Shown here piece after piece: positions 16,786 to 57,990 of a stretch of 64,000 bases of DNA. The first letter of the stretch is position 1. Every line of letters starts with the position of its first letter. A program made the position numbers and the translations under genes. The notes under the pieces are model-generated. The model searched no databases, was not told where the DNA came from, and was given only the letters and a program-made list of their open reading frames with translations. The DNA comes from Chromobacterium haemolyticum (GTDB lineage Bacteria > Pseudomonadota > Gammaproteobacteria > Burkholderiales > Chromobacteriaceae), in contig NZ_MUKU01000016.1 in the NCBI RefSeq assembly GCF_002081825.1, positions 1 to 64,000 of the forward strand, read 5' to 3'.

Positions 16786-16925
16786 GAATGTATTTACGAT
16801 CTCGCGAGCTAAGGCGAGACAAGGCGAAAACGAGCGAAAAAGCGGAATGTACAGGTGGTACATGAGCATTTTGAGCTCGGTTTCAACGCCGTATCGCCGA
16901 CGCGCAGCAGATCGTAAACAGGTTC
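16786..16925. repeat. Stop-codon-associated MITE, family 1, copy B
   Basis: A 140-bp well-preserved copy. The left end is GAATGTATTTACGATCTCGC, and the right end, on the opposite strand, GAACCTGTTTACGATCTGC. It is flanked by TTA on both sides (16783-16785 and 16926-16928). The right TTA is, on the minus strand, the TAA stop codon of pgk. The centre carries TGTAC-AGGTG-GTACA. Confidence 0.88.
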
Positions 16926-18101
16926 TTAGCCGGCGCGCTCGCCCAGGATGGTCACCGCCGGCAACTCCTTGCCTTCCAGGAACTCCAGGAAAGCGCCGCC
17001 GCCGGTGGAGATGTAGCTGATGCGCTCGGTGATGCCGTACTTGGCGATCGCCGCCAGAGTATCGCCGCCGCCGGCGATGGAGAAGGCCGGCGAGGCGGCG
17101 ATGGCCTGGGCCAGGGTCTTGGTGCCGCCGCCGAACTGCTCGAACTCGAATACGCCCACCGGGCCGTTCCATACCACGGTGCCGGCTTTGGCGATGATGG
17201 CGGCCAACTCCCGCGCCGAATCCGGGCCGATGTCCAGAATCATGTCGTCGGCCTCCACGTCCGCCGCGTTCTTGGTCACAGCGGCGGCGGTTTCGGCGAA
17301 CTCCTTGGCGCAGACTACGTCAGCCGGCAACGGCACATTGCCGCCGCGAGCGCGGATCTTGGCGATCACCTTTTTGGCCTCGTCCACCAGTTCGGCTTCG
17401 GCCAGCGATTTGCCGATGGCCTTGCCCTCGGCCAGCAAGAAGGTGTTGGCGATGCCGCCGCCCACGATCAACTGGTCAACCTTGTCGGCCAGCGATTCCA
17501 GAATGGTCAGCTTGGTGGACACTTTGGAGCCAGCGACGATGGCCACCAGCGGCCGCGCCGGCGCTTGCAGCGCCTTGCCCAGCGCTTCCAGCTCGGCGGA
17601 GAGCAGCACGCCGGCGCAGGCGGCCGGCGCGAACTGGGCCACCGCGTGGGTGGAGGCTTCCGCGCGGTGAGCGGTGCCGAAGGCGTCGTTGACGAACACG
17701 TCGCACAAGGCGGCGTAGGCGCGGCCCAGATCGGCGTTGTTCTTTTTCTCGCCCTTGTTCAGGCGCACGTTCTCCAGCATCGCCACTTCGCCGGGCGCCA
17801 CGCTGAAGCCGGACTGCCAGTCCGCCACCAGGCGCACCGGCCGGCCCAAGAGGCCGGACAAACGCTCCACCACCGGCGCCAGGCTGTCTTCCGGCTTGGG
17901 TTCGCCCTCGGTGGGGCGGCCCAGATGGGTCATCAGGATCACGCCGGCGCCGGCCTTCAGGCACAGCTCGATGGACGGCAGGCTGGCGCGGATGCGGGTA
18001 TCGTCGCCGATGACGCCGTTTTTCACCGGCACGTTCATGTCCACGCGGATCAGCACGCGCTTGCCGGCCAGGGCCTGTTCGGAAAGTTTATTGAATTTCA
18101 T
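16926..18101 (-). CDS. pgk: Phosphoglycerate kinase
   Basis: A 391-residue two-domain kinase that transfers phosphate between 1,3-bisphosphoglycerate and ADP. Conserved segments include [41 protein letters not shown] with [47 protein letters not shown] and the C-terminal phosphate loop [12 protein letters not shown] ... [13 protein letters not shown]. It starts inside the end of the upstream zinc-ribbon gene (14-bp overlap). Its TAA stop coincides with the target duplication of repeat copy B, so no terminator follows directly. Confidence 0.97.
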
Positions 18102-19203
18102 CGTTCGCTCGCTCGGGTTTGGATTCGCTTGTCGATTGATTCATCGGCGCAGATTCCGGCTTGGCGCCGGGACGGCCGCATTTTTTGCAGTACGGAAAAA
18201 AGGCGAAATTGCGCGCACCGCAGTCGCAGCCGCGGAACAGCTGCAGGCCGCAATGCACGCAGTAGTCGGCGTCGTCGCCGGCAATATTGTATTGATGGTC
18301 GCAGGACGGGCAAGTTTTCTTCTGGTAGGCGCCCAAGGCCTGGGCGTAGGCCACGTGACGCGCGCGCTCGCTCTGGCTTTGCTGCAGTTCGGCGCGCTTT
18401 TTCTCCGCGTAGCGCTGGAAGGCCTGGATCATGCGCAGGCCGGCGAACACCGTCAGCGCGATGCCGACGGCCAGCCGCACATAGCCGCCGAAATTGGGCA
18501 GATAGGGCAGCAACTCGACAAAGAAAGCGAACAAGGCGAACAGGCCGAAGCCGTAAACGAAGAACCAGTAACGATGAGTCCGGTAACGGCTGAACAGCCA
18601 TACCGCCAGCAAGAGCAGCGGCAGGATCATCGCCAGCCGCAGCAGGAAGACCTTCAACTCGAAGCGCTGGTAGGCCTGCTGGTAACGATCCTGGGCGACC
18701 GTCTCCACCCGGACGATTTCCTCTTGCAGCGTTTGCCGGCTCCGCTCCAGCCCGCGCAGGCCGTCGCTCGCCCGGTCTTCCTTCTGCTGCCATTGCAGGA
18801 TCTGCGCCTGCAGGGCGTCCAGTTCCCGAGTGCGGCGACTGACTTCGGCGCTTTGCCGCGGATCGGCGCTGGTGGCGCGGCTGGCCAGCCAATTGGCCAA
18901 GCCCTTGCGCTGGGTCTGGTAATTACGCTCCAGTTGCTCACGGGTGGCGCCAAGGTTTTCCAGTTGGGCTCGCTGCGCGTCGTTCTGGCGCTGCAAGGCC
19001 TTCTGCCGCTGCCGCAGCGGCTCGATGCCGGCCTGCTGTTGCAGCGTTTCCAGCTGCGGCGGGCCGCCGTCCGGCACGTAGAACAGATCGCGGATCACCA
19101 GCTCGCCCAGATTGGACAGAAAGCCGGCGAACACCAAAGCCACCAGCCAGGAGGCCAGCCGGACCCATTTTTCAGGGCGGGACAGTGCTTGGTTTTGTCG
19201 CAT
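18088..19203 (-). CDS. Coiled-coil membrane protein with C-terminal zinc ribbons, function unknown
   Basis: A 371-residue protein lying between gap and pgk. One transmembrane helix near residues 13-35 is followed by a long Gln/Glu/Arg-rich coiled coil (about 45-165) that probably lies in the periplasm. Three further membrane helices occur near 180-265. The cytoplasmic tail has a run of zinc-binding pairs: CPSC, CVHC, a CDC and CKKC. AGGAGAG stands before the ATG at 19203, and its end overlaps the pgk start, so it is cotranscribed with pgk. I do not recognise a characterised homologue. The design suggests a membrane scaffold or sensor. Confidence 0.8.
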
Positions 19204-19333
19204 GCTGCTCTCCTGTAACGGCGGGTTCAGCGGGGGCGATTCGGCGATCGCCCGGCAAGTGTATGCCAAAAAAACGGCCCTACCTTAACATCAATCAAAT
19301 GCCTGTGGATGTAGCGCCCGCGCTAGCAGACGT

Positions 19334-19367
19334 AAAAAATCCGGGCCGGCATGGCGCGCCGGCCCGG
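19334..19367 (-). terminator. Intrinsic terminator after gap
   Basis: A 10-bp GC stem CCGGGCCGGC/GCCGGCCCGG with a 7-base loop, followed on the minus strand by ATTTTTT. It lies about 20 bp after the gap stop and implies that the zinc-ribbon gene and pgk have a separate promoter. Confidence 0.9.
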
Positions 19368-19388
19368 ATTTCCTGGATCACTTCGTCG

Positions 19389-22955: not shown

Positions 22956-23711
22956 ATGCAATCATTCGATGCCCTACCCGCTCCGCGCAAAGTCGCTTTA
23001 GGACGCGGCTGGCGCTGGATCGTGGAGGCCTTCTACATTGTTCGTCAGCAGCCGCTGACCTGGATTTTGCTGGCGCTGGCCTATCTGGTGATCAATTTCA
23101 TCGTCAGCATGATTCCCTTGCTGGGCGGCCCGCTGTCCTTCTTCCTGGCGCCGGTGTTCGCCGCCGGCTTCATCCTGGCGGCGAAAAAATGCGAGCAGGG
23201 ATCGGAGCTGGAACTGGGCGATCTGTTCGCCGGCTTCAAGACCGCGCTGCGGCCGCTGATCAATGTGGGCATGCTGTACCTGGCCATCCTGATCGTCATC
23301 GGCGTGGTGCTGGGCCTGTTGATGGGCGCGATGGGCGTGAGCGTGGCCAAGAGCGACCCCAACGCGATCCCGGTGATCGCCGGCCCCATCGCGCTGTTCG
23401 CCTTCATCGGCGGCGTGGCCATCTTCCTGGTCAGCCTGGCTTACTGGTTCGCGCCGGCGCTGGTGACGCTGAACCAGGCCGGCCCGTGGCAGGCGATCCG
23501 CGCCAGCCTGCAAGCCGGCCTCGCCAACTGGGGCGCGGTATTGGTAAGCGGTCTGATGCTTGCGGTGCTGGCCTTCATCGCGATGATTCCGCTGGGCCTT
23601 GGCCTCTTGCTGTGGTTCCCGGTGCTGTACGTGACCGCCTACACCGGCTGGAAAGATATTTTCGGCCAGTCGGCGACGCCGGCGCGGCCGGACGAGCCGG
23701 TGGTGTTTTAA
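22956..23711 (+). CDS. BPSS1780/YciC-like integral membrane protein
   Basis: A 251-residue membrane protein with about six hydrophobic helices, of the group annotated as BPSS1780 family (related to YciC/DUF975-type proteins). Function unknown. The sequence GWRWIVEAFYIVRQQPLTWILLALAYLVINFIVS at the start and FAPALVTLNQAGPWQAIRASLQAGLANWGA in the middle show the family's paired amphipathic and membrane segments. TTGGAG precedes the ATG by 7 bp. The TAA stop is directly followed by repeat copy C, beyond which the terminator is found. Confidence 0.85.
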   Translation: MQSFDALPAPRKVALGRGWRWIVEAFYIVRQQPLTWILLALAYLVINFIVSMIPLLGGPLSFFLAPVFAAGFILAAKKCEQGSELELGDLFAGFKTALRPLINVGMLYLAILIVIGVVLGLLMGAMGVSVAKSDPNAIPVIAGPIALFAFIGGVAIFLVSLAYWFAPALVTLNQAGPWQAIRASLQAGLANWGAVLVSGLMLAVLAFIAMIPLGLGLLLWFPVLYVTAYTGWKDIFGQSATPARPDEPVVF

Positions 23712-23841
23712 GAACCTGTTCAAAGTCTGCTGCGCGTCGGCGATGCGGCGTTAAAAACCGCTGCGAAATGCTCATGCACCATCGCTTCCTCAGCCGTTTT
23801 CGCCTTGTCTCGCCTTAGCTCGCTAGATCGTAAACACGCTC
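23712..23841. repeat. Stop-codon-associated MITE, family 1, copy C
   Basis: A 130-bp copy in the reverse orientation to B. It starts GAACCTGTTCAAAGTCTGC and ends GATCGTAAACACGCTC. TAA flanks both sides (23709-23711 and 23842-23844); the left TAA is the stop codon of the membrane-protein gene. It separates that gene from its terminator at 23866-23889. Confidence 0.88.
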
Positions 23842-37159: not shown

Positions 37160-37235
37160 GTACGGCTCACGATCGCGCGCGCCACCGAACTCTCCGTGTC
37201 GCGTCCCGCGAAGCGCAGCGGATCGTGAGCAAACC
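37160..37235. repeat. Shortened remnant of family 1 MITE (copy L)
   Basis: GTACGGCTCACGATCGCGCG at the left and GCGCAGCGGATCGTGAGCAA at the right resemble the two ends of the element, with most of the middle deleted. It shares its right-hand TTA flank with copy D. Confidence 0.5.
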
Positions 37236-39396: not shown

Positions 39397-39473
39397 GCAC
39401 CTGTTCAACGCCGTATCGCCGACGCTCAACGGACATTGAACAGGCTCTTAGCGCGCGAGATCGTGAACTGGCT
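39397..39473. repeat. Two adjoining remnants of family 1 MITE (copy E)
   Basis: The first remnant (39397-39447) runs from GCACCTGTTCAACGCC to CATTGAACAGGCTC, between TAA and TTA. The second (39451-39473) is only the right-hand end GAGATCGTGAACTGGCT, followed by CTAA. The acetyltransferase gene on the minus strand ends within one base of this last end (stop at 39474-39476). Confidence 0.6.
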
Positions 39474-40034
39474 CTAACAACTGGCGGCAGCCCATTGCAG
39501 CACTTCGCGCCGAGGGCCGGAGAACGGAAGCGGCACCGCGGACAACAGCAGGTTCAGCCGCGGCTCCGCGCCCAGCGGCTGCACCACGAAGCCCAGCCGT
39601 CGCGCCAATTGCAACATGGCGATGTTGCCCGGCGCGCAATCGGCCCAGATCCGGTGCCAGCCCAGCTGCCGATAGCCGAAGTCCAGCATCATTCGCGCCG
39701 CTTCCAGCGCGTAGCCCTGGCCCCAGGCCGACTCCGCAAGCTCGATGCCGAAGCCGGCTTCGCCGCCGCGCTCCAGTCCGCGCAGACCCACCGAGCCCAG
39801 CAGCGCCTTGTCTTCGACGCGCACGATGGCCAGCTGCCAGGCTCGCCGGGGAGAATCGCGCTGCTGCTCCAGAAAGCGCAGCAACCATTGCCCGCTGCGC
39901 GCCGGCGTCACTTCTTCAGGCGGGTAATGACGAGCGAACTCGCGGCCGCTGCGCGCCATCGCGTAGGCAGAGTGGTCGTCCGGGCGGAAATCGCGCAGCA
40001 TCAGGCGCCGACTGTAGAGCAAGGGGCTCAGCAT
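39474..40034 (-). CDS. RimJ/RimL-type GNAT acetyltransferase
   Basis: A 186-residue acetyltransferase of the RimJ/RimL group. It begins LYSRRLMLRDFRPDDHSAYAMARS, and the acetyl-CoA segment is GFGIELAESAWGQGYALEAARMMLDFGYRQLGWHRIWADCAPGNIAMLQLARRLGF. The substrate is unknown. The ATG at 40034 overlaps the end of the preceding small gene by 7 bp, with GAAGGG upstream, so translation is probably coupled. The stop codon abuts repeat remnants E. Confidence 0.9.
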   Translation of the reverse strand: MLSPLLYSRRLMLRDFRPDDHSAYAMARSGREFARHYPPEEVTPARSGQWLLRFLEQQRDSPRRAWQLAIVRVEDKALLGSVGLRGLERGGEAGFGIELAESAWGQGYALEAARMMLDFGYRQLGWHRIWADCAPGNIAMLQLARRLGFVVQPLGAEPRLNLLLSAVPLPFSGPRREVLQWAAASC

Positions 40035-40445: not shown

Positions 40446-40586
40446 GAACGTGTTTATGATCTCGCGAGCTAAGGCGAGACAAGGCGAAAACGGCTGAGAA
40501 AGCGGAATGGTCATACGGTACATGAGCATTTCGAATGCTGTTTTCAACGCCGTATCGCCGACGCGCAGCAGATCGTAAACAGGTTC
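40446..40586. repeat. Stop-codon-associated MITE, family 1, copy F
   Basis: A 141-bp copy starting GAACGTGTTTATGATCTCGC and ending GATCGTAAACAGGTTC. TTA flanks both ends (40443-40445, 40587-40589), the second being the TAA stop codon of the gene on the minus strand. The rest of the gap 40220-40445 shows only the hairpin at 40404-40429. Confidence 0.9.
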
Positions 40587-42670: not shown

Positions 42671-45600
42671 ATGTCGATCCGCCACGCAGACCTGGAAGAA
42701 AAATACACGGCCCCCACCGGCCAGGTGCTGATGACCGGGATTCAGGCGCTGGTGCGCCTGCCCATGCTGCAACAACAACTGGACCGCGCCGCCGGGCTCA
42801 ATACCGCCGGCTACGTCACCGGCTATCGCGGCTCGCCGCTGGGCAACGTAGACCAGACCATGCAGAAGGCCGGCAAATACCTGCAGGAGCACAATGTTGT
42901 GTTCCATCCCGGCCTTAACGAGGACCTGGCCGCCACCGCGGTCTGGGGCACTCAGCAGGTGAATATGTTCGACGGCGCCAAATACGACGGCGTCTATTCA
43001 CTGTGGTACGGCAAGGGCCCGGGCGTGGATCGCTCCGGCGACGTGCTCAAGCACGGCAACGCCGCCGGCACCAGCCGTTACGGCGGGGTGCTGCTGGTGG
43101 CCGGCGACGACCACGCGGCCAAGTCGTCCACCTTCCCGCATCAATCCGACCACATCCTCGCCGCCAGCATGATTCCGGTGCTCAGCCCGTCCGGGGTGCA
43201 GGAAATCATCGATTACGGCCTGCATGGCTGGGCGATGAGCCGCTATTCCGGCTGCTGGGTGTCCATCAAGGCGATATCCGACACCATTGAAAGCTCGGCC
43301 ATCGTCGACATCTCGCCGGAACGGCTGCAGTTCAAGATTCCGGCGGACTTCCCACTGCCGGAAGACGGCCTCAACATCCGCTGGCCGGACGCCCCTCTGG
43401 CGCAGGAAAAACGCGTGCTGCACCACCGCTTGTACGCGGCCCTGGCCTATGCCCGCGAAAACAAGCTGAACCACATCACCCTGGATTCGCCCAAGCCGCG
43501 GCTGGGCATCATCACCTGTGGCAAAAGTTATCTGGACGTGATGCAGGCGCTGGACGATCTGGGCATAGACGAAGCCCTGGCCGCCGATATCGGCTTGCGC
43601 ATCTTCAAGGTGGGCATGGTGTGGCCGCTGGAGCCGGAAGGCGTGCGCCAGTTCGCCGAAGGGCTGGAAGAAATCCTGGTGGTGGAGGAAAAACGCCAGA
43701 TCATCGAGTACCAGCTGAAAGAGCAGCTGTACAACTGGCGCGATGACGTGCGACCGCGCGTGGTGGGCAAGTTCGCCGAAAAAGGCGAATGGGCGCTGCC
43801 ACACGGCGACTGGTTGCTACCGGCCGCCGGCGAACTGACCCCCGCGATGATAGCGCGCGCGATCGCCGGCCGGCTGGCGCTGATTTTCGACAGCCCCATC
43901 ATCCACGACCGGCTGAAGTTCTACGACGACAAGGAAGCCCAGCTGGTCCAGCCGCGCGAATCCATCGCCCGCGTGCCGCATTACTGCTCCGGCTGTCCGC
44001 ACAACACCAGCACCAAGGTGCCGGAAGGCAGCCGCGCCGTCGCCGGCATCGGCTGCCACTACATGGCGCACTGGATACAGGCCGACAGCACCAAGACCTT
44101 CACCCAAATGGGCGGCGAAGGCATCACCTGGGTGGGCCAGGCGCCGTTCACTCACACCAAGCACATTTTCACCAATCTGGGCGACGGCACCTACTTCCAC
44201 TCCGGCCTGCTGGCCATCCGCGCCGCCGTGGCCGCCAAGGTCAACATTACTTACAAGATCCTGTACAACGACGCGGTGGCGATGACAGGCGGCCAGCATG
44301 TGGACGGTTATCTGGACGTGCCGATGATCACCCGCCAACTGGCGGCGGAAGGCATTAAGCGCATCGTGATCACCAGCGACGACCCGGACAAATACCAGAA
44401 CGTCCAGGGCTTGGCGGCCGGCGTGGAAGTCTTCCACCGCCGCGAGCTGGACCAGCTGCAAAAAGAACTGCGCGAAGTCGAGGGCACCAGCATCCTGATC
44501 CACGATCAGACCTGCGCCGCCGAGAAGCGCCGCCGCCGCAAACGCGGCGACTTCCCCGACCCCGCCAAGCGCGCCTTCATCAACCAGCAGGTATGCGAGG
44601 GTTGCGGCGATTGCGGCCAGAAATCCGGCTGTCTGTCGGTGCTGCCGGTGGAAACCCCGCTGGGGCGCAAGCGCAAGATCGACCAATCCAGCTGCAATAA
44701 GGACTATTCCTGCGTAGAAGGCTTCTGTCCCAGCTTCGTCACCGTGGAAGGCGGCCAACTGAAGAAATCCGCCGGCAGCAGCGCCAGCCTAAGCACGATG
44801 CCGACACTGCCTGAACCGAAGATCCCGCAGCTTCATGAACCGTTCAGCATCATGGTCACCGGCGTGGGCGGCACCGGCGTGGTCACCATAGGCCAGGTGC
44901 TGGGCATGGCCGCCTATCTGGACCGCAAAGGCGTCACCGTGCTGGACATGGCCGGCCTGGCGCAAAAAGGCGGCTCGGTGTGGTCGCATGTGCGCATCGC
45001 CGACAGCCAGGACAAGCTGCACGCCGTGCGCATCGCCGCCGGCGACGCCAACCTGGTGCTGGGCTGCGACCTGGTGGTGACCGCCGCCGAGGAGGCGCTG
45101 GCCAAAATGCGCGACGGCTTCAGCCACGCCATCGTCAACAACTACGAATCGCCGACCAGCGCCTTCCTGAAGAATCCGGACGTGCGCTTCCCCAGCAAGG
45201 CGATGAAAGACGCCATCATCGAGTCGGTGGGCGCCGGCCGCTACAGCGAGGTCAACGCCACCCGGCTAGCCACCTCCCTGCTGGGCGACGCCATCGCCAG
45301 CAATATGTTCATGCTTGGCTACGCTTGGCAAAAGGGCTTGGTGCCGGTGACTCTGGAAGCCATCATGGAAGCGGTGCGTCTGAACGGCGCCGCGGTCAAG
45401 TTCAACCAGGACGCCTTCAGCTGGGGCCGTCACGCCGCCCACGATCCGGCGCGCATCGAAGCGCTGGTCAGCCCGTCGGCGGTGGTGGCCTTCGTTCCAC
45501 GTGAAACCCCTGACGCCGTGCTGCACCATCGCGCCACCGCGCTGACCGCCTATCAGAACGCGGCGCTGGCCGAACGCTACAAGGCGCTGGTGGCGCGGGT

Positions 45601-46147
45601 GCGTCAGACCGAGGAAGCGTTGAACCCGGCCAGCAGCGCGCTGACGCTGGCGGTGGCCAAAAATTACTACCATGTGCTGGCGTACAAGGACGAGTACGAA
45701 GTGGCCCGGCTCTACACAGACGGCGGCTTCCAGCGCGAGCTGGCGCAGCAGTTTGACGGCGATTACCAGCTACGCTTCCACATCGGCGCCGGCTGGATTA
45801 CCGGCGGGCAGCCGCGCAAAGTGGCCTTCGGCCCCTGGCTGCTGACCGGCATGAAGTGGCTGGCCAAACTGCGCTTCCTGCGCGGCACCCTGCTGGACCC
45901 GTTTGCCCGGCAGGCCGACCGCAAGCTGGAGCGTCGACTGATCGGCGTGTTTGAGCGGCAGGTGGAAGACTTGCTGGGCGGACTGACGCTGGACGCGCTG
46001 CCGCGCGCGGTGGAGCTGGTGAAAACCTGGGAAGGCGTGCGCGGCTTCGGCCACATCAAGGAGCGCAACTACCAGCAGGCCAAGAGCAAACAAGCCCAGT
46101 TGCTGGGCGAACTGAAGCCGGGCGGCAAAAACCGCCAGGTGGCCTAA
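42671..46147 (+). CDS. Indolepyruvate ferredoxin oxidoreductase, fused alpha-beta type
   Basis: A 1158-residue enzyme fusing the IorA- and IorB-type subunits, oxidatively decarboxylating aryl- or branched-chain 2-oxo acids to acyl-CoA with ferredoxin as acceptor. The N-terminal part has GYVTGYRGSPLGNVDQTM and the TPP domain YCSGCPHNTSTKVPEGSRAVAGIGCHYMA with MGGEGITWVGQAPF. Cysteine clusters CEGCGDCGQKSGC and SCNKDYSCVEGFC (about 642-685) fit an iron-sulfur site. The gamma-type domain starts VTGVGGTGVVTIGQVLGMAA, and a DUF6537-like C-terminal region follows. Start ATG at 42671 with AGGAGGAG upstream. TAA is followed at once by a family 2 repeat. Confidence 0.93.
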   Translation: MSIRHADLEEKYTAPTGQVLMTGIQALVRLPMLQQQLDRAAGLNTAGYVTGYRGSPLGNVDQTMQKAGKYLQEHNVVFHPGLNEDLAATAVWGTQQVNMFDGAKYDGVYSLWYGKGPGVDRSGDVLKHGNAAGTSRYGGVLLVAGDDHAAKSSTFPHQSDHILAASMIPVLSPSGVQEIIDYGLHGWAMSRYSGCWVSIKAISDTIESSAIVDISPERLQFKIPADFPLPEDGLNIRWPDAPLAQEKRVLHHRLYAALAYARENKLNHITLDSPKPRLGIITCGKSYLDVMQALDDLGIDEALAADIGLRIFKVGMVWPLEPEGVRQFAEGLEEILVVEEKRQIIEYQLKEQLYNWRDDVRPRVVGKFAEKGEWALPHGDWLLPAAGELTPAMIARAIAGRLALIFDSPIIHDRLKFYDDKEAQLVQPRESIARVPHYCSGCPHNTSTKVPEGSRAVAGIGCHYMAHWIQADSTKTFTQMGGEGITWVGQAPFTHTKHIFTNLGDGTYFHSGLLAIRAAVAAKVNITYKILYNDAVAMTGGQHVDGYLDVPMITRQLAAEGIKRIVITSDDPDKYQNVQGLAAGVEVFHRRELDQLQKELREVEGTSILIHDQTCAAEKRRRRKRGDFPDPAKRAFINQQVCEGCGDCGQKSGCLSVLPVETPLGRKRKIDQSSCNKDYSCVEGFCPSFVTVEGGQLKKSAGSSASLSTMPTLPEPKIPQLHEPFSIMVTGVGGTGVVTIGQVLGMAAYLDRKGVTVLDMAGLAQKGGSVWSHVRIADSQDKLHAVRIAAGDANLVLGCDLVVTAAEEALAKMRDGFSHAIVNNYESPTSAFLKNPDVRFPSKAMKDAIIESVGAGRYSEVNATRLATSLLGDAIASNMFMLGYAWQKGLVPVTLEAIMEAVRLNGAAVKFNQDAFSWGRHAAHDPARIEALVSPSAVVAFVPRETPDAVLHHRATALTAYQNAALAERYKALVARVRQTEEALNPASSALTLAVAKNYYHVLAYKDEYEVARLYTDGGFQRELAQQFDGDYQLRFHIGAGWITGGQPRKVAFGPWLLTGMKWLAKLRFLRGTLLDPFARQADRKLERRLIGVFERQVEDLLGGLTLDALPRAVELVKTWEGVRGFGHIKERNYQQAKSKQAQLLGELKPGGKNRQVA
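45494..45507. other. parS-like ParB-binding site 4
   Basis: GTTCCACGTGAAAC within the oxidoreductase gene, encoding Val-Pro-Arg-Glu-Thr. Confidence 0.75.
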
Positions 46148-46259
46148 GAGCCGCTAACAAAACTCAGTTTTACGGCTGAGGCAAGGCACGCCGACGCAGG
46201 CAGTACAAGTCGTACGACAAGGAGGCGCAACGCAGTATCAGGAGTTTTGTTAGCAGGTC
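46148..46259. repeat. Stop-codon-associated MITE, family 2 (copy J), Correia-like core
   Basis: A 112-bp element with inverted ends GAGCCGCTAACAAAACTC and, on the other strand, GACCTGCTAACAAAACTC. TAA flanks both ends (46145-46147, the stop codon of the oxidoreductase, and 46260-46262). Its core GGCAGTACAAGTCGTACG and GGCAAGGC/GGAGGCGCAACGC blocks resemble the core of the Neisseria Correia element as I remember it, although the ends differ. The native terminator follows at 46318. Confidence 0.8.
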
Positions 46260-46317
46260 TAAGTTGAACGGATTGAAGTTGCTGTAAACGTAGTACCCGA
46301 GTGTTCCTACAGCTTGC

Positions 46318-46349
46318 GGGCGTCGACCATGTCGACGCCCTCTTTTTTT
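46318..46349 (+). terminator. Intrinsic terminator displaced by the family 2 repeat
   Basis: GGGCGTCGAC-CAT-GTCGACGCCC followed by TC and seven T. It is the expected terminator of the oxidoreductase gene but lies 170 bp beyond its stop, behind the repeat. Confidence 0.9.
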
Positions 46350-46474
46350 CCCGCCCGTTCTTTCTGCCGGTCAAACCCCACTTCGAATTGAAAATGCCAA
46401 TCGCATTTTCTAGTATTGAAGATGGCGCGCTGCCGCCAACTCAAAACTCAAACGAACCAATATGGAGACCCGCC

Positions 46475-47026
46475 ATGCCCCTGACCCCTCGCCACTGGCT
46501 GCTCGCTTCCGCCTGCGCGCTCTTGCTCGGCTGCGCGGCCACGCCCGGCAGCGACCGCTGCGCCGGCCAGACCCAGCCGGCCTTGCCCGGCATGGCCGCG
46601 GTGGACAATCCCGATCTGCTGAATAGCGCATTGGGCCAGCCCGGCAAAGGCGGCCTGTGCGCCGGCCAGGTGCGACGCCAGGAGCCGGCGGATCAAACCG
46701 TGACGGTCTACCGCGTCTACGACAACAACAAGGCCAACTCGCGCCTGGGCCGCTGGTGGTCGTTCAGCCAGCCGCAGGGGCCGACAAGCGCCTACCGCGC
46801 CGCCAACGCCATCTGCCCGAGCTGGAGCCAGCTCAACCGCATGGTGCGCTGCCAACTCAAAGTGGGCGCGCAAGTGGCGGTAGGCCCCGGCCAAAGCGCC
46901 GATTGCGCGCCGGACGCCAATTACCCGCCGTCACCGGTCAATCAGGTTTACATCCCCAACTCCGGACCGGACACCTTGTGGGTGGAGCAATGCCAGGATA
47001 TGGGTGATTTCCCGCCGGCGTCCTAA
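46475..47026 (+). CDS. Lipoprotein, function unknown
   Basis: A 183-residue lipoprotein. The lipobox ALLLGC places the modified Cys at residue 20. The mature part is rich in Asn, Gln and Pro with VTVYRVYDNNKANSRLGRWWSFSQPQ, an AICPSWSQLNRMVRCQLKVGAQVAVGPGQSADC segment and QVYIPNSGPDTLWVEQC; five or more Cys may form disulfides. I do not recognise the family. GGAG lies before the ATG at 46475; an open frame continues to 46301 but lacks a leader. The TAA stop abuts repeat copy G. Confidence 0.75.
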   Translation: MPLTPRHWLLASACALLLGCAATPGSDRCAGQTQPALPGMAAVDNPDLLNSALGQPGKGGLCAGQVRRQEPADQTVTVYRVYDNNKANSRLGRWWSFSQPQGPTSAYRAANAICPSWSQLNRMVRCQLKVGAQVAVGPGQSADCAPDANYPPSPVNQVYIPNSGPDTLWVEQCQDMGDFPPAS

Positions 47027-47169
47027 GAACGTGTTTACGATCTCGCGAGCAAAGGCGAGACAAGGCGAAAACGGCTGAAAAAGCGGAATGTACAGGTGGT
47101 ACATAAGCATTCTGAAGCCGCACTCACCGTTTCACCCCTCGCGGCGCGCAGCAGATCGTAAACGGACTC
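47027..47169. repeat. Stop-codon-associated MITE, family 1, copy G
   Basis: A 143-bp copy starting GAACGTGTTTACGATCTCGC directly after the TAA stop (47024-47026) of the lipoprotein gene and ending GATCGTAAACGGACTC before TGA. One flank has thus changed from TAA. The centre has TGTAC-AGGTG-GTACA. Confidence 0.88.
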
Positions 47170-47244
47170 TGAGACGAGCCGCCCGGTTGACGCCGGTCTC
47201 CCAAGCCATCAGCATGGCCGCTTCATCCAAGATGAGGAACGGCC

Positions 47245-47778
47245 ATGCGCCTTCAATCCATGCTCGCCGCCGGCCTGTGCGCCGCCCTATTCCACGCCGG
47301 CCCGGCGTTCGCCGCCGAAGACAGCATCGCCGCCGCCAAAGCGCTGCTGCAGGCGATGCGTTACGACGAGATCATCGCGCAAACGATGCAACAGATGGAA
47401 GCCACCATGCAGCAGCAAATGGAGCAGCAGCTGTGGCAAAACCTGCCAAACTGCGCGGAGACGCCTGACTGCAAAAACAAGGTCGGCACCTTTTTGCAGC
47501 AGATGATGAAAACCCAGCAAGCCTATTTCCACTCTCCCGAAACCCGCAAATTGATGAACGGAGTGCAGGTCCAAGCGCTGAGCAAGAATTTTAGCGTCGC
47601 CGAGATCCGCGAGATGAGCGCTTTCTATCAAACCCCCACCGGCAACAAGATGCTGCGGCTGATGCCCAAGATCACGGCGGAAATCGGTCCGGTGCTGATG
47701 CAGGACATCGGCCAGCGCTTGATGCCCGAGCTCAAGCAGCAGATGGACGAGTTCGCGCGGCGGAACGACGTCCGCTAA
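47245..47778 (+). CDS. DUF2059 domain periplasmic protein
   Basis: A 177-residue exported protein, paralogue of the gene at 354-896. The signal peptide ends AGPAFA (about residue 23). The mature domain is helical, with FHSPETRKLMNGVQVQALSKNFSVAEIREMSAFYQTPTGNKMLRLMPKI, the DUF2059 core. A pair of Cys in LPNCAETPDC distinguishes it from the other copy. GAGG precedes the ATG. A terminator follows. Function of the family unknown. Confidence 0.88.
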   Translation: MRLQSMLAAGLCAALFHAGPAFAAEDSIAAAKALLQAMRYDEIIAQTMQQMEATMQQQMEQQLWQNLPNCAETPDCKNKVGTFLQQMMKTQQAYFHSPETRKLMNGVQVQALSKNFSVAEIREMSAFYQTPTGNKMLRLMPKITAEIGPVLMQDIGQRLMPELKQQMDEFARRNDVR

Positions 47779-47797
47779 ACCGGCCAACACGCAGCAA

Positions 47798-47826
47798 AAC
47801 GGGGCCAGCGGCCCCGTTATTGTTGT
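47798..47826. terminator. Intrinsic terminator between convergent genes
   Basis: AACGGGGCC-AGC-GGCCCCGTT followed by ATTGTTGT, 20 bp after the DUF2059 stop and 17 bp before the stop of the opposing mscS gene. Confidence 0.8.
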
Positions 47827-47842
47827 CCAGCGCCTGCGGCGC

Positions 47843-48646
47843 TCAGCTCTGACGCACCACCATCGCCTGCTCCGGCGCCGGGAAGCCGCCGGCGGCCAGG
47901 GTCTCGCGAATCACGCGGTTGCTGTCAAAATACACCTGCCAATAGTCCTGCGGCTTGCAATACGGCCGCACAGCCAACACCGGTCCCAAGGGCGTGAACT
48001 CCAGCAGGCCAACGTCCGGCGCCGGGCTGGCCAGCACATTGGGCACCTTGGCCACCGTCTCCCGCAGCAAACTCATCGCCGCGGCGTGATCAGCGCTGGC
48101 GGCCAACTGGGCTTTCAGGTCTACTCGGCGCTGCTCGGTGGCGCTGAAGTTCTGGATGGTGTCGGAAAAGATTTTGTTGTTGCCGATCAGGGTCAGCACC
48201 CCGTCCGGCGTATCCACCGCGGTGGCGAACAGACCAATGTGCTTGACCGTGCCGACGACGCCGGCCACGCCCACCAGATCGCCCACTTTGAACGGCCGCA
48301 ACACCACCAGGAAGATGCCGGCGGCGAAGTTGGCCAACAAGCCGCTCCAGGCCATGCCGACCGCCACGCCGGCGGCGGCGATCACTGCGGCGAAGGTCGT
48401 GGTCTGCACTCCGAAGAAACCGAGAATGCCGATCACCAGCACGATAGTCAGCGTCACATCCAGGAAAGATCTCACATACTGACGAATAGTGTGGTCCAGC
48501 GACTTGCTGGCCAGCTTGGCGTCCAGCAGCCGAGTGGCGAAATTGATCAGCCAGCGGCCCACCAGCCACAGCAAGATGGCCGATAAAATGTTGAGGCCGA
48601 TTTTCACCGCCAGATCGGTCCAGTGACTCCAGTTAATGGCATCCAT
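47843..48646 (-). CDS. mscS: Small-conductance mechanosensitive channel (MscS family)
   Basis: A 267-residue channel of normal MscS length that opens on membrane tension during hypo-osmotic shock. Three transmembrane helices occupy about 10-110; the pore helix is AGVAVGMAWSGLLANFAAGIFLVVLRPFKVGDLV, with the Gly/Ala packing pattern of TM3. The beta domain contains GTVKHIGLFATAVDTPDGVLTLIGNNKIFSDTIQNFS. AAGGGGG precedes the start. It is a single-gene unit. Confidence 0.95.
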   Translation of the reverse strand: MDAINWSHWTDLAVKIGLNILSAILLWLVGRWLINFATRLLDAKLASKSLDHTIRQYVRSFLDVTLTIVLVIGILGFFGVQTTTFAAVIAAAGVAVGMAWSGLLANFAAGIFLVVLRPFKVGDLVGVAGVVGTVKHIGLFATAVDTPDGVLTLIGNNKIFSDTIQNFSATEQRRVDLKAQLAASADHAAAMSLLRETVAKVPNVLASPAPDVGLLEFTPLGPVLAVRPYCKPQDYWQVYFDSNRVIRETLAAGGFPAPEQAMVVRQS

Positions 48647-48803
48647 TTGTAAATCCCCCTTTTCAACGGTTTTGCAACATGTTTAAAGATAGGAGATTGA
48701 CACAGAAATACCAAATGAATTTTAAATGCGAAGCCACGCCGCAGTTCTTTAAAGCCTCTTCAAGTTCTCGCGAGCCGACGCGCGGCGGATCCTGCGCCGC
48801 CTC

Positions 48804-49532
48804 TCAGACCTTGGACAAGGCGCGGCAGGTCTCCCCTATGCCACCCAGAATGCGCAGGTCGAAGGCGTGATCCATGCGCGTGGGCGTGTAATTGATCAAG
48901 GCGGTGGCCACGCCGGCCTGCGCCGCTTCCAAAGGAATCAGATTGACCGGCGACACCTCCAGCGACGAGCCCATCACCAGCAGCAGGTCCGCCTGCAAGG
49001 CGGCGTCGAAGGCCAACTCAATCAAGGGCACCGCCTCCCCGTACAACACCACGTCGGGCTTGAGCACGTCGTGGCACAGCCGGCAGACCGGCAATGGGTG
49101 ATGCAGCACGTAATCCAGCGCATGAGTGGTGTCGCAGCTGGGACAGCTGGCGGTCAGCAAGCTGCCGTGCAATTCCAGTACCTGGCTGCTGCCGGCGCGC
49201 GCGTGCAGGCCGTCTATGTTCTGGGTCAGCACCGTCACCCGCTTGCCCTGTTGCTCCAGTTCCGCCAGGAATTGGTGCCCGGCGTTGGGCCGGTAATCGC
49301 CAATCAACTTGATGCGGAAGATCTCTCGAAACGCCAGCCAGAACGCCTCCGGGTCGCTGCGGAAATAATCGATGGACACCACTTCGGCCAAGCTCATGCT
49401 ACGCGACCACAGGCCGTTGGCGGAGCGAAAGTCCGGGATGCCGGACTCGGTGCTCATGCCGGCGCCGGTCAGCGCCACAATGGTTTCCGCCTGCTCCAGC
49501 ATCTGGCGAAGGCGGTGTATTTGCTCGGACAT
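48804..49532 (-). CDS. NAD-dependent protein deacylase (sirtuin)
   Basis: A 242-residue Sir2 protein that removes acyl groups from lysine using NAD+. Motifs are GAGMSTESGIPDFRS (23-37), TQNIDGLHARAG (103-114), the catalytic His122 in LELHGSL, zinc cysteines 130, 133, 150 and 153, and VMGSSLEVSPVN. The zinc pairs are complete. The arginine/tyrosine pair that marks desuccinylases of the CobB class is not evident. It precedes a MazG-like gene on the same strand, 96 bp away. Confidence 0.94.
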   Translation of the reverse strand: MSEQIHRLRQMLEQAETIVALTGAGMSTESGIPDFRSANGLWSRSMSLAEVVSIDYFRSDPEAFWLAFREIFRIKLIGDYRPNAGHQFLAELEQQGKRVTVLTQNIDGLHARAGSSQVLELHGSLLTASCPSCDTTHALDYVLHHPLPVCRLCHDVLKPDVVLYGEAVPLIELAFDAALQADLLLVMGSSLEVSPVNLIPLEAAQAGVATALINYTPTRMDHAFDLRILGGIGETCRALSKV

Positions 49533-49628
49533 CTATGCATTCCAGCTAATGAATGAAGCGAAATCTAAGCCAGGTTCAATCAGCGATAACAACGCCAAAC
49601 CACAGCTTAGCTTTTCCATGCCGTAGGC

Positions 49629-49967
49629 TCAGCCGGCCGTTGGCACAGGGTATTTGACGGCGTTTTTCGCCATCTTGTCGCGTACCGCCGCGTCCAGATC
49701 CACTCCCGTCACCATCGCCAGCCGCGTCAGGTAGAGCAGCACGTCGGCAATTTCCTCCTGCAGATGGGAGAAGCGCGCCGGATCGTGGCGCAGCGCGACA
49801 GCCTCCTCGTCGCTCAGCCATTGGAAGATTTCCGCCAATTCGCCCACCTCTCCCACCAAAGCCAGCATCAGGCCGCGCGGCGTGTGATAACGGTTCCAAT
49901 CGCGTTCATCGGCAAAACGCTGCAATGCGGCGGTGAGTTTTTCAGTAGAGATCAGGGCTTCGGTCAT
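49629..49967 (-). CDS. MazG-like nucleotide pyrophosphohydrolase
   Basis: A 112-residue all-alpha NTP pyrophosphohydrolase of the short MazG/dCTPase group. The metal site is formed by GEVGELAEIFQW (about 36-47) and EEIADVLLYLTRLA (about 71-84); the C-terminal KMAKNAVKYPV is a family hallmark. It would hydrolyse non-canonical or excess nucleotides to monophosphate and pyrophosphate. A parS-like sequence lies 12 bp upstream of its start. Confidence 0.92.
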   Translation of the reverse strand: MTEALISTEKLTAALQRFADERDWNRYHTPRGLMLALVGEVGELAEIFQWLSDEEAVALRHDPARFSHLQEEIADVLLYLTRLAMVTGVDLDAAVRDKMAKNAVKYPVPTAG

Positions 49968-49979
49968 CGTTCTATCCGG

Positions 49980-49993
49980 GTTTCACGTGGAAC
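49980..49993. other. parS-like ParB-binding site 5
   Basis: GTTTCACGTGGAAC in the intergenic region just upstream of the MazG-like gene, followed by A as in the full parS. Confidence 0.75.
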
Positions 49994-50013
49994 ATCAGGC
50001 GCTTGCCGCCTCA

Positions 50014-50149
50014 GAATCGGTGCAAAGTCTCGCGAGCAAGACAAGGCGTTGCGGCAGAGAAAGCGGAGAGTACATACGGTATATGCGCATTTCGAAGTTG
50101 TACTCACCGTGTAACGCGCCACAACGCGCAGCAGGCATTGAGCAGGTTC
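50014..50149. repeat. MITE, family 1, copy H (diverged)
   Basis: A 136-bp copy starting GAATCGGTGCAAAGTCTCGC and ending GGCATTGAGCAGGTTC before TTA (50150-50152). This is the only near-complete copy not touching a stop codon, but it lies just 10 bp beyond the TAA of the cpdB gene. Confidence 0.75.
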
Positions 50150-50162
50150 TTAAACCTTTATC

Positions 50163-52070
50163 TTATTCCACCAGCTCCAAGCTCACCGAACCGTCGCCAT
50201 GCTCCGCCGCCAGGCGGAACTGCGGCTGGCGCGCCAGATAGCGCAACGCGCCGGCGCCGGTGTCGAAGCGCATGGCGACGCCGGACACCGGCAGGATGCG
50301 CCAGGCCGGCTTGGCCGCCGGGTCCACCACCTTGCGCTCGGCCAGATAGGCGGCCACCGCCGCGCGGTTTTCGTCCGGAGAATCCACCACCACGCGGCTG
50401 GCGTCGATGCCGGGGAAGTGGCCGCCGCCGGAGGCGCGGTAGTTGTTGGTGGCCACCAGGAAGCTGGCGTTCTCGTCTATCGGCTTGCCCTGATAGCTCA
50501 GCTTGACGATGCGATGGCTGTCCGGCGCCGCCAGCTTGCCGTCGGCGTCGTAGCGCGCCGGCCGGCTGACGTCGATCTCATAGCTGACGCCGGCGATGCT
50601 GTCGAAGTTGTAGGAACGGAACTCCGGGTTCAGCAACGGCTGGGTCTTGGGGCCTTTGGGATCGATGCGCAGAAACTGCCCAGCCGACATCTCCAGCCAT
50701 TCGCGCACTTCACGGCCGCTGACCTTCACCGCCTTCAGCGTGTTGGGATAGATATAGAGATCGGCCAGATTGCGGATCGCCAGCGGGCCGGCCGGGATGT
50801 CGGTGTAGTAATTCCAGCCCTGACGGCCGCCGGCCTTGAACGGCGCGGCAGCGGACAGCACCGGCAAGCCTTCGTACTCGGTGCCCTTGACCGCGTTCTT
50901 CACATACCAGGCCTGGGCCTCCGCCACAATCTGCACCGAGGGATCGTCCGCCGCCTGAGCGAAGTAGCTGTAGATGGGCGCGCGGGTTTCCGCCACCTTG
51001 CCGCGCACATAGTCCAGCGTCCGGCGGTGTTCGGCGGCGATCAGCTCGGCCACCTTGGGCTCGGCGGCCGCCAGCGATCGCTTGGCCTGCTTATCGTAGA
51101 TGGCGCGCAAGCCGGCCTGTTTGCCGCTGACTTTCCAGCCGCCGTCGCCGCGCTCCAGCACCAGGTCCACCACGCCGATATGGTCGCCCCAGCGTCCCGG
51201 CATCACCGCCGGCACGCCGTTAATGGTGCCGGCGGCCAGGTCCACCTTGGGATAGCCGGCGAAGGCGGAAGACGGGAATTCCGCGTGAGCGTGGCCAAAC
51301 AGGATGGCGTCGATGCCGGCCACCTCGGCCAGGCCGGCCACCGAGTTCTCGGCAAAGCGCGCGCTCTCGCCTTTTTCGAAACCGGAATGCGGCACCGCGA
51401 TCACGATGTCGGCGCCCTTCTGCTTGAGCTCGGGCAGATAGCGGCGCGCGGTGTCGACGATGTCCCTCACCTCCACCTTGCCCTGCAGATTGGCCTTGTC
51501 CCACTGCATGATCTGCGGCGGCACAAAGCCGATCACGCCGATGTTCAGCATCTGCGGTTGGCCGTCCTCATCCTTGAACTCCCGCTTGAGCAACACATAG
51601 GGCTGGAAATAGGGCTGGCCAGTCTTGGCGTCCACCACATTGGCGTTGACATAGGGGAAGGCCGCCGTCTTCAGCGCCTGGCTCAGGAAGGGCAAGCCGT
51701 AATTGAATTCGTGGTTGCCGATATTGCCGGCGTCGTAACCCAGCCAGTTGAGCACTTTGTAGGCGGGATGAACCTCGCCTGCGCGCAGCGGCTGAACCTT
51801 GGCCACCAGATCGCCCAAGGGATTGCCCTGCAACAGGTCACCGTTGTCTATCAGCAGATTGTTGGGCGCCTCTTGCCGCGCCGCGCGGATCAGCGTCGCC
51901 GCGCGCGCCAGGCCGAAGTCCTGCGTCGGCTTGTCCTGGTAGTAGTCGTAATCCAGCAGGTTCATGTGCACGTCGGAGGTTTCCAACACCCGCAGCTTCA
52001 GCGGGGCGGCCCAGCCGTTGGCGGCCAGCGCGGCCAACAGGGAGGAGACGAGGAGAGGCGCAAGTTTCAC
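50163..52070 (-). CDS. cpdB: 2',3'-cyclic-nucleotide 2'-phosphodiesterase/3'-nucleotidase
   Basis: A 635-residue periplasmic enzyme of the CpdB type that hydrolyses 2',3'-cyclic nucleotides and 3'-nucleotides. A signal peptide (ending GWAAP) is followed by LRVLETSDVHMNLLDYDYYQD, NIGNHEFNYGLPFLSQAL, VPHSGFEKG and LFGHAHAEFPSS, the metal-site blocks. In the C-terminal domain, NLADLYIYPNTLKAVKVSGREVREWLE and YRASGGGHFPGID bind the base. The start is GTG at 52070 with AAGGG upstream. Single gene. Confidence 0.95.
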   Translation of the reverse strand: MKLAPLLVSSLLAALAANGWAAPLKLRVLETSDVHMNLLDYDYYQDKPTQDFGLARAATLIRAARQEAPNNLLIDNGDLLQGNPLGDLVAKVQPLRAGEVHPAYKVLNWLGYDAGNIGNHEFNYGLPFLSQALKTAAFPYVNANVVDAKTGQPYFQPYVLLKREFKDEDGQPQMLNIGVIGFVPPQIMQWDKANLQGKVEVRDIVDTARRYLPELKQKGADIVIAVPHSGFEKGESARFAENSVAGLAEVAGIDAILFGHAHAEFPSSAFAGYPKVDLAAGTINGVPAVMPGRWGDHIGVVDLVLERGDGGWKVSGKQAGLRAIYDKQAKRSLAAAEPKVAELIAAEHRRTLDYVRGKVAETRAPIYSYFAQAADDPSVQIVAEAQAWYVKNAVKGTEYEGLPVLSAAAPFKAGGRQGWNYYTDIPAGPLAIRNLADLYIYPNTLKAVKVSGREVREWLEMSAGQFLRIDPKGPKTQPLLNPEFRSYNFDSIAGVSYEIDVSRPARYDADGKLAAPDSHRIVKLSYQGKPIDENASFLVATNNYRASGGGHFPGIDASRVVVDSPDENRAAVAAYLAERKVVDPAAKPAWRILPVSGVAMRFDTGAGALRYLARQPQFRLAAEHGDGSVSLELVE

Positions 52071-57159: not shown

Positions 57160-57263
57160 GCGAAAACGCTCCGGCGACGATAAGGGAATGCCGCAATTCA
57201 CTCTAGTCCAAATCCCCGCCCTGGTCGGGAAAAAGCCCGTAAGCAAAACGCTTGCCGGCGAGC

Positions 57264-57279
57264 TTTACATTTGGTAACA
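57264..57279 (+). promoter_or_regulatory. RstA/CpxR-like direct repeat upstream of the first Spy-like gene
   Basis: TTTACATTTGGTAACA, two half-sites of an OmpR-family regulator type, close to the enteric RstA box TACATNTNGTTACA. Located 110 bp before the gene. A related sequence precedes the second Spy-like gene. Confidence 0.5.
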
Positions 57280-57388
57280 ATTGATCCCGGCCCACTCACA
57301 CTTAATTGACAGTCGCCATCCAGAATAATGGAGTGATCCTGCCGATGTCGTCCGCCCGCATCGCAGCCATCAATGGAATGGCCCACCT

Positions 57389-57868
57389 ATGAAACCGCAG
57401 ATACCCTTTATATTCGCCTGCCTCGCCGCCGGCGCCGCTCTGGCCGCGCCGCCGGAACCCGCTTGCCCGCCGATGGGCAATTTCGCCGGCCGTCCGTGGA
57501 AAATAGACCCGGCCAAACGCGACGCTTTTATCGCCCAGCACCAGAAAGCGCTGCACGACAAGCTCAAGATCCAGCCGGCCCAGGAGGCCGCGTGGCTGGC
57601 CTTCGCCAGCGCCACCCGCCCCGGTCCGATGCCGTCTTGCGAAAACGCGTCCACCGCGCCGGAACGCATGGAACAGCGCGTGCTGATGGCCCAGCGCCAC
57701 CTGCTGAACCTGCAAAAGCGCTTGGAAGCGCTCAAATCCTTCTACGGCCAGCTCACGCCCGAGCAGCAGAAAATCATGGACCAGGACAGCCCGCCGCTGA
57801 TGGGGGGCCGGGGCCAGGGGCCGATGCGCAAACTGCAGGCCGGCCAAGGCAACGAGCCCCACAACTAA
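57389..57868 (+). CDS. Spy/CpxP family periplasmic protein
   Basis: A 159-residue exported protein of the Spy/CpxP (LTxxQ) family. The signal peptide ends AAGAALA; the mature helices carry HQKALHDKLKIQPAQEAAWLAFASA and LEALKSFYGQLTPEQQKIMDQ, with the LTPEQQ motif. Such proteins are ATP-independent periplasmic chaperones or sensors induced by envelope stress. A paralogue lies at 58206. Its TAA stop codon is directly followed by repeat copy I. No strong ribosome site; ACCT precedes the ATG. Confidence 0.88.
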   Translation: MKPQIPFIFACLAAGAALAAPPEPACPPMGNFAGRPWKIDPAKRDAFIAQHQKALHDKLKIQPAQEAAWLAFASATRPGPMPSCENASTAPERMEQRVLMAQRHLLNLQKRLEALKSFYGQLTPEQQKIMDQDSPPLMGGRGQGPMRKLQAGQGNEPHN

Positions 57869-57990
57869 GAAGCTGTTCAAAGCCTCGTGAGCAAGATCGG
57901 GGCAAGATCTTGCGGCAGAGAAAGCGGAAGGCACCCACGGCAGATGGGCATGTCGCGTCTCACCAAGCGCAGCAGATTTTGAACAGACTC
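57869..57990. repeat. Stop-codon-associated MITE, family 1, copy I
   Basis: A shorter, diverged copy of 122 bp starting GAAGCTGTTCAAAGCCTCG immediately after the TAA stop (57866-57868) and ending GATTTTGAACAGACTC. The right flank no longer matches TAA. The rest of the 57991-58205 gap carries the second OmpR-type box and the promoter of the next gene. Confidence 0.8.

What the first reader, a model, noticed from the sequence alone, without database searches (positions are those of the whole stretch)
16786..57990. Dispersed 120-155 bp inverted-repeat element that is nearly always found at a stop codon
Copies at 2082-2226, 16786-16925, 23712-23841, 37239-37394, 40446-40586, 47027-47169 and 57869-57990 begin directly at the stop codon of a gene; copy H (50014-50149) is 10 bp away. 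The stop TAA (or its complement TTA) is the flanking 3-bp repeat in copies B, C, D and F. Both orientations occur. A TAA/TTA target would be rare inside genes in this GC-rich DNA but common at stops, so target preference plus selection against damage explains it. The stop codon is regenerated by the duplication, so insertion is harmless to the protein. I know of no description of a MITE with such complete stop-codon association.
Basis: partly seen in the sequence, partly recalled or inferred. Interest (0 to 1): 0.85.

Follow-up and report, generated by a model that had tools for sequence, protein, structure and literature searches.

The report
Mobile repeat that lands on stops
A short non-coding jumping DNA, present in roughly 300 copies in a Chromobacterium-like bacterium, inserts at a five-letter site that in GC-rich DNA is often a gene's stop codon and rebuilds that stop as it lands, so it can spread without breaking genes.

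Summary
All eight window copies are real and form one ~140-bp MITE family, with about 300 full copies estimated for the genome (Chromobacterium, by PGK identity). The stop association is real but weaker than in the window: 72 of 129 full copies sampled from three species have an end exactly at a stop codon; 2 of 129 lie inside a called gene. The target is C-TNA-G, duplicating TNA. TAA and TGA are themselves TNA, and a TAG in CTTAG is rebuilt with the element's terminal G, so all three stops regenerate. A co-resident 850-bp IS5-family insertion sequence with matching ends and the same target is the likely mobiliser. Empty sites in relatives carry a single TNA stop (two sites tested). The association rises with host GC and is nearly absent in a 54% GC host (1 of 33), supporting target composition plus purging. 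The element folds as a full-length covarying hairpin. This is a new family of a known kind (compare ERIC, QMITE2) with an unusually clear way of sparing genes. Host function is unproven.

The parts
2082..2226 (+). Copy A; right end abuts TGA stop (2227-2229, minus strand) of a serine-hydrolase gene 2227-2799; no identical flanks
16786..16925 (+). Copy B; flanks TTA/TTA; right end abuts TAA stop of phosphoglycerate kinase gene (16926-18101, -)
   Evidence: empty site in three congeners
23712..23841 (-). Copy C; flanks TAA/TAA; right end abuts TAA stop of gene 22956-23711 (+)
   Evidence: a copy with the same flanks in C. alkanivorans locus L271
37239..37394 (+). Copy D; flanks TTA/TTA; right end abuts TAA stop of Peptidase_M3 gene 37395-39296 (-); extra GCAGC units near the right end
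40446..40586 (+). Copy E; flanks TTA/TTA; right end abuts TAA of a 91-aa ORF (40587-40862, -)
47027..47169 (+). Copy F; left end abuts TAA stop of gene 46301-47026 (+); far flank TGA, so no identical duplication
   Evidence: empty sites
50014..50149 (+). Copy H; 13 bp from TAA stop of gene 50163-52070 (-); flanks TCA/TTA
57869..57990 (+). Copy I (shortest); left end abuts TAA stop of LTXXQ gene 57389-57868 (+)
37186..37235 (+). Remnant of an older element's right end, separated from copy D by TTA: head-to-tail tandem
   Evidence: (profile match 37186-37231, E 3e-4)
39403..39474 (+). Two short right-end remnants in tandem (first ends 39447, then TTA; the second reaches the stop of gene 39474-40136, -)
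   Evidence: first part E 7e-4, second part only E 0.037 on the other strand; reading of the sequence

Best explanation
A non-autonomous IS5-family MITE. Its ends (GAAC[C/G]TGTTTACGATCT or GAACCTGTTCAAAGTCT on the left; GATCGTAAACAGGTTC and variants on the right) are recognised by the transposase of a co-resident ~850-bp IS5-family element and inserted into C-TNA-G with duplication of TNA. Because the element begins with G and ends with C, each insertion leaves C-TNA-G at both ends, so any stop lying in the target (TAA or TGA as TNA; TAG as T-TAG) is rebuilt and new target sites are created, giving head-to-tail tandems. In GC-rich hosts harmless sites are scarce and many are stop codons; insertions inside genes are purged, so survivors pile up exactly at stops. 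The left end may favour a pyrimidine next to the target's C, which would help turn the right end to the stop. Shown here: family, target, regenerated stops, gene avoidance, GC dependence, orientation bias, covarying hairpin. Inferred: the mobilising transposase, the purging step, and insertion rather than retention as the source of the orientation bias.
For: Family and copies: (161 perfect matches to a right-end pattern, 0 for the reversed control). Target: 49 of 87 full copies have identical TNA flanks, 28 of the 49 within C-TNA-G. Stops: 72 of 129 copies; 75 junctions: 36 TAA, 25 TGA, 14 TAG. Gene avoidance: 2 of 129 full copies in called genes against 1021 of 1347 empty sites in 864 kb of this genome and 504 of 699 in G005. 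Empty sites: copy B in G001, G002, G005; copy F in G005, G014 and, at 69% identity, G018; in named species the copy B site is empty (C-TGA-G) in C. aquaticum and filled in C. alkanivorans. GC: from 1 of 33 at 54% to 10 of 10 at 67.5%, Spearman 0.67, p 0.03 over 10 genomes. IS: family NF033580, 17-nt exact end matches by reading, same target. Orientation: 104:36; stop-G-purine 22:4 against stop-G-C 21:18, p 0.015.
Against: Non-coding C-TNA-G sites away from stops are about threefold less occupied than stop sites even where no promoter is expected (convergent: 33:11 occupied against 94:95 empty, p 0.0025), so supply plus purging of gene hits is not the whole account; uncalled short genes may explain part. 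The orientation bias is not fully explained by the next base, and that test was made after seeing the data. G034 shows no such bias (5:7). 38 of 87 copies have no perfect TNA duplication. The MITE profile matches the IS only at its ends and weakly (E 0.04 or worse). Two congeners rich in copies (G005, G014) had no match to the transposase C-terminus, so another transposase may serve there or the copies are relics. The full-length covarying fold is more than end recognition needs.
Confidence: 0.77

Rival explanations
1. Host-useful 3'-end module: copies are kept at stops in one orientation because the transcribed hairpin alters mRNA 3' ends (stability, RNase processing or Rho-dependent termination), as reported for ERIC.
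For: Full-length covarying hairpin: 13 of 37 pairs changed on both sides, 144 such cells against a mean of 47 in shuffles, 97.6% paired against at most 38.7% when slid. Threefold excess at stops. Orientation bias 41:14 in a second set of six genomes, in both co-directional and convergent pairs (p). The minus strand of element positions 25-70 is pyrimidine-rich.
Against: The link between orientation and distance to the next gene (p 0.0015) did not replicate (p 0.36). No intrinsic-terminator-like site in copies D, E, F or H. The C-over-G excess of the minus strand is unremarkable, reached by 23% of sequences downstream of stops. In a 54% GC host copies lie away from stops. Pairs common to both strands' folds show no G-T over A-C excess (10 against 12). 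No expression data were available.
Confidence: 0.14
2. The transposase or its complex actively targets gene 3' ends, for example through termination or transcription, independent of sequence.
For: Threefold occupancy of stop sites over other non-coding C-TNA-G; orientation follows gene direction.
Against: Among 32 non-stop copies chosen for TNA flanks, the C before and the G after are still preferred (65% and 75%), and tandem insertions use the same site at element ends; the association fails in the 54% GC host; orientation is near even when the base after stop-G is C (21:18).
Confidence: 0.06
3. The stop codons are created by the element rather than pre-existing: genes run into it and end in its flank.
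For: In 12 of 75 stop junctions the stop is a TAG that uses the element's terminal base.
Against: Empty sites in relatives already have the stop there: copy B in G001, G002 and G005, copy F in G005, G014 and G018; the copy B site also in C. aquaticum.
Confidence: 0.03

Closest known systems
IS5-family insertion sequence, NCBIfam NF033580 (transpos_IS5_3); TNA-duplicating members belong to the IS1031 subgroup (recalled, not tested)
   Same: Ends read as 17-nt exact matches to MITE end variants, same TNA-G flank, co-resident, inserted beside MITEs and at stops
   Different: 850 bp and carries a transposase frame; the MITE profile matches IS loci only at its ends, at E 0.04 or worse
ERIC (enterobacterial repetitive intergenic consensus)
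   Same: 127-bp repeat classed with MITEs, 30 to 711 copies by genome, reported at 3' ends of genes, with an orientation-dependent effect on mRNA stability (PMC2229807 section 10; PMC10969869 passages)
   Different: Sequence relation not tested. The review passage gives a TA motif at the ends of most such repeats; here TNA is duplicated and the stop is rebuilt
QMITE2 of Coxiella
   Same: MITE found mainly in 3' untranslated regions; all functional annotated genes affected have the insertion at their 3' ends (PMC5896051 passages)
   Different: 7-11 nt duplications of variable sequence; several copies overlap gene ends by 1-10 bp, so C-termini can change
Correia / NEMIS elements of Neisseria
   Same: Short structured MITEs of the neighbouring Neisseriaceae (PMC2229807 and PMC10969869 passages)
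   Different: Different ends and a TA target (recalled); no stop association in the passages I read

Membership tests
MITE (non-autonomous DNA transposon) | Short, terminal inverted repeats, no transposase gene | tested here: met
   ~140 nt, ends complementary; too short for a transposase
MITE (non-autonomous DNA transposon) | Target-site duplication and empty sites in relatives | tested here: met
   49 of 87 identical TNA; empty sites for copies B and F
MITE of an IS5-family element | Ends shared with a full IS that makes the same duplication | tested here: met
   850-bp IS in L144 with TTA flanks and left end GAACCTGTTCAAAGTCT; ten right ends in this genome read TNA-G beyond the end. Profile support alone is weak
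MITE of an IS5-family element | Mobilised by that transposase | not testable with these tools
   needs a transposition assay
IS5 family (the IS, not the MITE) | DDE transposase of the family | tested here: met
   NF033580 150.8 bits over cut-off 110; PF01609 109.6 bits over 23
IS1031 subgroup | Subgroup-specific transposase and TNA duplication | tested here: inconclusive
   TNA seen at IS flanks; no subgroup comparison made; subgroup trait recalled
ERIC | Sequence homology to ERIC | not tested
   no ERIC sequence was compared
Rfam RNA families | Match to a curated family at gathering score | tested here: not met
   0 matches in the window
Intrinsic terminator | GC-rich stem followed by a T run | tested here: not met
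   no hit inside copies D, E, F or H in 37000-51000; four of eight window copies covered

The most novel reading that the evidence does not exclude
A selfish element whose target, end bases and orientation preference together make it a stop-codon specialist in GC-rich hosts, and whose conserved hairpin then serves hosts as a portable mRNA 3' end retained in the favoured orientation at hundreds of genes.
Probability: 0.13. Interest if true: 0.75.

Novelty: new variant of a known kind. Interest (0 to 1): 0.5.

Why it matters
It shows how a mobile element can spread to hundreds of copies in a compact genome with almost no gene damage: the target site can hold a stop codon, and the element's end bases restore whichever stop it lands in. 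The dependence on host GC makes a simple testable rule (target composition sets where a MITE can live). The excess at stops and the orientation bias give a measurable residue for asking whether such elements become mRNA 3' ends.

Tried and rejected
Replication-strand bias as the cause of orientation: no clear relation by contig (plus-oriented full copies 37 of 51 in negative-skew and 23 of 36 in positive-skew stretches, sums; not tested formally). Target central base as the cause: in the 21 non-stop, non-tandem copies with TTA or TAA flanks the split was 11 and 10, and TAG stops show the bias too, 11:3. Flank GC: no left-right difference at 49 non-stop sites. Intrinsic terminator: none in the four copies scanned. 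Rho-type signal: minus strand only moderately C-rich. Orientation tied to distance from the next gene: seen first, not replicated. Stop association as a general trait of such IS: a 40%-identical IS of G006 had no called gene ending at the junction in the 12 full copies examined, though gene calls there were sparse. Plasmid and phage copies: no match at E 1e-5. Alignment A2 mixed strands and was discarded; A3 replaces it, leaving out L012, L019, L020, L022, L024 and five of the eight window copies (A, C, D, H, I).

Limits: genes were called by a home-made hexamer scorer, not a published tool; its coding density was 84-87%, so some 'non-coding' sites may be coding. Element ends were shifted by up to 2 bases, favouring TNA flanks. 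'Full' means both model ends reached and over 45 bits; partial hits (25 of 97 in this genome, 11 of 48 in G005, 4 of 24 in G014) were dropped before the stop counts, and 8 tandem copies not at a stop were left out of the occupancy test. Copies in G034, G022, G031, G019, G049, G057 and G020 were chosen from the best BLAST matches, not at random; a first pass on 40 of them gave 33 at stops and 23:13. The G057 gene calls were trained on few kilobases. Some insertions are shared by congeners; with near-duplicate and remnant-flanked sites removed the bias is 35:13.
Full report
What is there. The eight copies of the finding are real and form one family: a profile built from them recovers all eight with E between 6.6e-42 and 5.9e-25 and no further full copy in the window. 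The genome (5.29 Mb, 88 contigs) holds many more: 377 first-look candidates, of which 40 were scored, gave 43 matches, and a degenerate right-end pattern has 161 perfect matches against 0 for the reversed pattern. In 1,264 kb of this genome (24%) I found 97 hits, 72 of them full length, which scales to about 300 full copies per genome. Phosphoglycerate kinase of the window is 97% identical to that of Chromobacterium aquaticum and C. alkanivorans, so the host is a Chromobacterium by inference. Of 61 genomes searched, this one included, 26 have a match. No plasmid or phage record matched at E 1e-5.

Target. In 87 full copies from 864 kb of this genome and 400 kb of congener G005, 49 have identical TNA flanks (22 TTA, 14 TAA, 9 TCA, 4 TGA in element orientation), 28 of these within C-TNA-G; the other 38 have no perfect TNA duplication. 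The element starts with G and ends with C, so insertion leaves C-TNA-G at both junctions. Tandem copies follow: of 12 adjacent pairs in the three sampled genomes, 11 have the same orientation and 9 are separated by exactly 3 bp.

Stop codons. Of 129 full copies (72 here, 37 in 400 kb of G005, 20 in 400 kb of G014), 72 have an end at a stop: 63 at distance 0 and 9 at -1; no other distance holds more than 3 copies, 13 copies have no stop facing them within 300 bp, and 2 lie in a called gene. The 75 stop junctions are 36 TAA, 25 TGA and 14 TAG; 12 of the TAG sit at -1. TAG works because CTTAG contains it: T and A come from the duplicated TTA and G from the element. Empty sites agree. Copy B is absent from G001, G002 and G005, which carry a single TCA there (a TGA stop); copy F is absent from G005 and G014, with a single TGA, and from G018 (69% identity) with a single TAA. 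For B, 15 other loci aligned on one side only, one of them (G014) because it holds the element; for F, 7 did, one of them (G001) holding it; the rest say nothing. In named species the copy B site reads GGC-TGA-GAAT without the element in C. aquaticum and carries it after TAA in C. alkanivorans; these may be the same genomes as some G handles.

Is it more than supply? Empty C-TNA-G sites in 864 kb of this genome: 1021 in called genes, 216 non-coding, 110 at stops. Gene interiors are strongly avoided. Against other non-coding sites, stops are over-occupied: 33:11 occupied against 94:95 empty between convergent genes (p 0.0025), 39:30 against 159:419 between co-directional genes (p 3e-6); 8 tandem copies not at stops were left out, and 8 copies lay between divergent genes, where there is no stop. 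Uncalled short genes could inflate the empty non-coding count. Across hosts the association follows GC: 1 of 33 copies at 54.0% GC (6 of 33 if any open frame of 80 codons ending there is counted), 6/10 at 61.2, 41/72 at 62.7, 11/20 at 64.5, 9/10 at 64.7, 20/37 at 65.0, 8/10 at 65.3, 23/30 at 65.5, 6/9 at 67.0, 10/10 at 67.5; Spearman 0.67, p 0.03. In the 54% host the empty non-coding sites were 107 away from stops and 2 at stops. This is the best support for composition as the main driver, but it rests on one low-GC host, with gene calls trained on little sequence.

Orientation. The right end faces the stop in 57 of 75 junctions in three Chromobacterium genomes (orientation against side, Fisher p 9e-6), in 35 of 48 after removing near-duplicate and remnant-flanked sites, and in 47 of 66 in seven other genomes; G034 goes the other way (5:7). 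Without G057 the pool is 104:36. The bias appears for co-directional and convergent neighbours alike (29:10 and 25:5; 19:5 and 22:9 in six other genomes). Part has a plain cause: in 71 clean junctions it is 47:24 overall, 22:4 where a purine follows stop-G but 21:18 where C follows (p 0.015), so the left end seems to prefer a pyrimidine beside the target C; a similar lean at non-stop sites is not significant (p 0.07, from rounded percentages). This base was looked at after the bias was seen. Element remnants on the far side (22 of 140 junctions) add to it. A first sign that orientation follows distance to the next gene (p 0.0015) did not replicate (p 0.36).

The mobiliser. Ten contigs of this genome begin or end in a copy of an IS whose C-terminus matches PF01609; in the copies read, the right end is GATCGTGAACAGGCTC followed by TNA-G, the C56 copy having a variant end. 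A full 850-bp copy in G001 (L144) has left end GAACCTGTTCAAAGTCT and TTA flanks, and its frame matches NF033580. One search read 21 right flanks, which are 17 distinct places; 7 of the 17 touch a MITE by profile and 5 have a called gene stopping at the junction, one of these an ORF that overlaps the MITE. The link is by reading of the ends: the MITE profile itself matches IS ends only at E 0.04 or worse. G005 and G014, rich in MITEs, gave no match to the C-terminus, and G011, with 19 matches, has no MITE match, so the pairing is not strict.

Structure. On 67 aligned copies from six genomes (A3) a hairpin spanning the whole element is kept: 37 pairs, 97.6% of cells paired, 13 pairs changed on both sides, 144 such cells against a mean of 47 in shuffles, and at most 38.7% paired when slid. 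The structure was derived from the same alignment, and sequences related by descent inflate such counts. The plus strand folds better than the minus in 92 of 114 copies, but pairs common to both strands' folds show no wobble preference (10 G-T, 12 A-C), so I do not claim which strand matters.

What is known. Nine searches of the open-access library listed no title or abstract describing this element or a stop-regenerating MITE; several lists were cut (for example 20 of 83, 10 of 104), full texts were not read, and subscription journals are mostly absent. Closest in print: ERIC at 3' ends with an orientation-dependent RNase E effect (PMC2229807 section 10; PMC10969869 passages), QMITE2 in 3' untranslated regions (PMC5896051 passages), and intergenic preference of MITEs generally (PMC10969869 section 10). 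So 'a MITE at gene 3' ends' is known; the rebuilding of all three stops by target plus end base, the GC dependence and the orientation rule look like new details within what I could search.

Verdict. A real, well-defined MITE family and a new variant of a known kind. Its stop association is chiefly target sequence plus purging, with a measured threefold excess and an orientation bias left partly open.

Noticed in passing
window 37350-37385 (copy D): Copy D carries extra GCAGC units near its right end, making it the longest window copy (156 nt).
   Followed up: no
window 39403-39474: Two right-end remnants in tandem, the second reaching the stop of the gene 39474-40136.
   Followed up: partly
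L296:11174-11314 (Vogesella margarita): A diverged copy of the element also abuts the PGK stop in another genus, with its left end at the stop (window copy B has its right end there): possibly an independent hit on the same stop.
   Followed up: no
contig ends of G000: C6, C20, C22, C32, C39, C40, C45, C49, C52, C56: The assembly breaks at copies of the IS5-family IS; several break points have a MITE directly beside the IS, sharing the TNA.
   Followed up: partly
G006, 12 full copies in L132-L143: A different transposase-bearing IS (865 bp matched, C-terminus about 40% identical) flanked by TTA or TAA-type bases, with no called gene ending at its junctions.
   Followed up: partly
own genome C1 15498, C23 110834 (sample coordinates), C88 28800; G005 g5a 177238, g5b 6672: Several elements lie directly beside a sequence like GACCCGCTAACAAAACCCCTGATCC, which resembles the end of the G006 IS: probably a second repeat family sharing the same insertion sites.
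   Followed up: no
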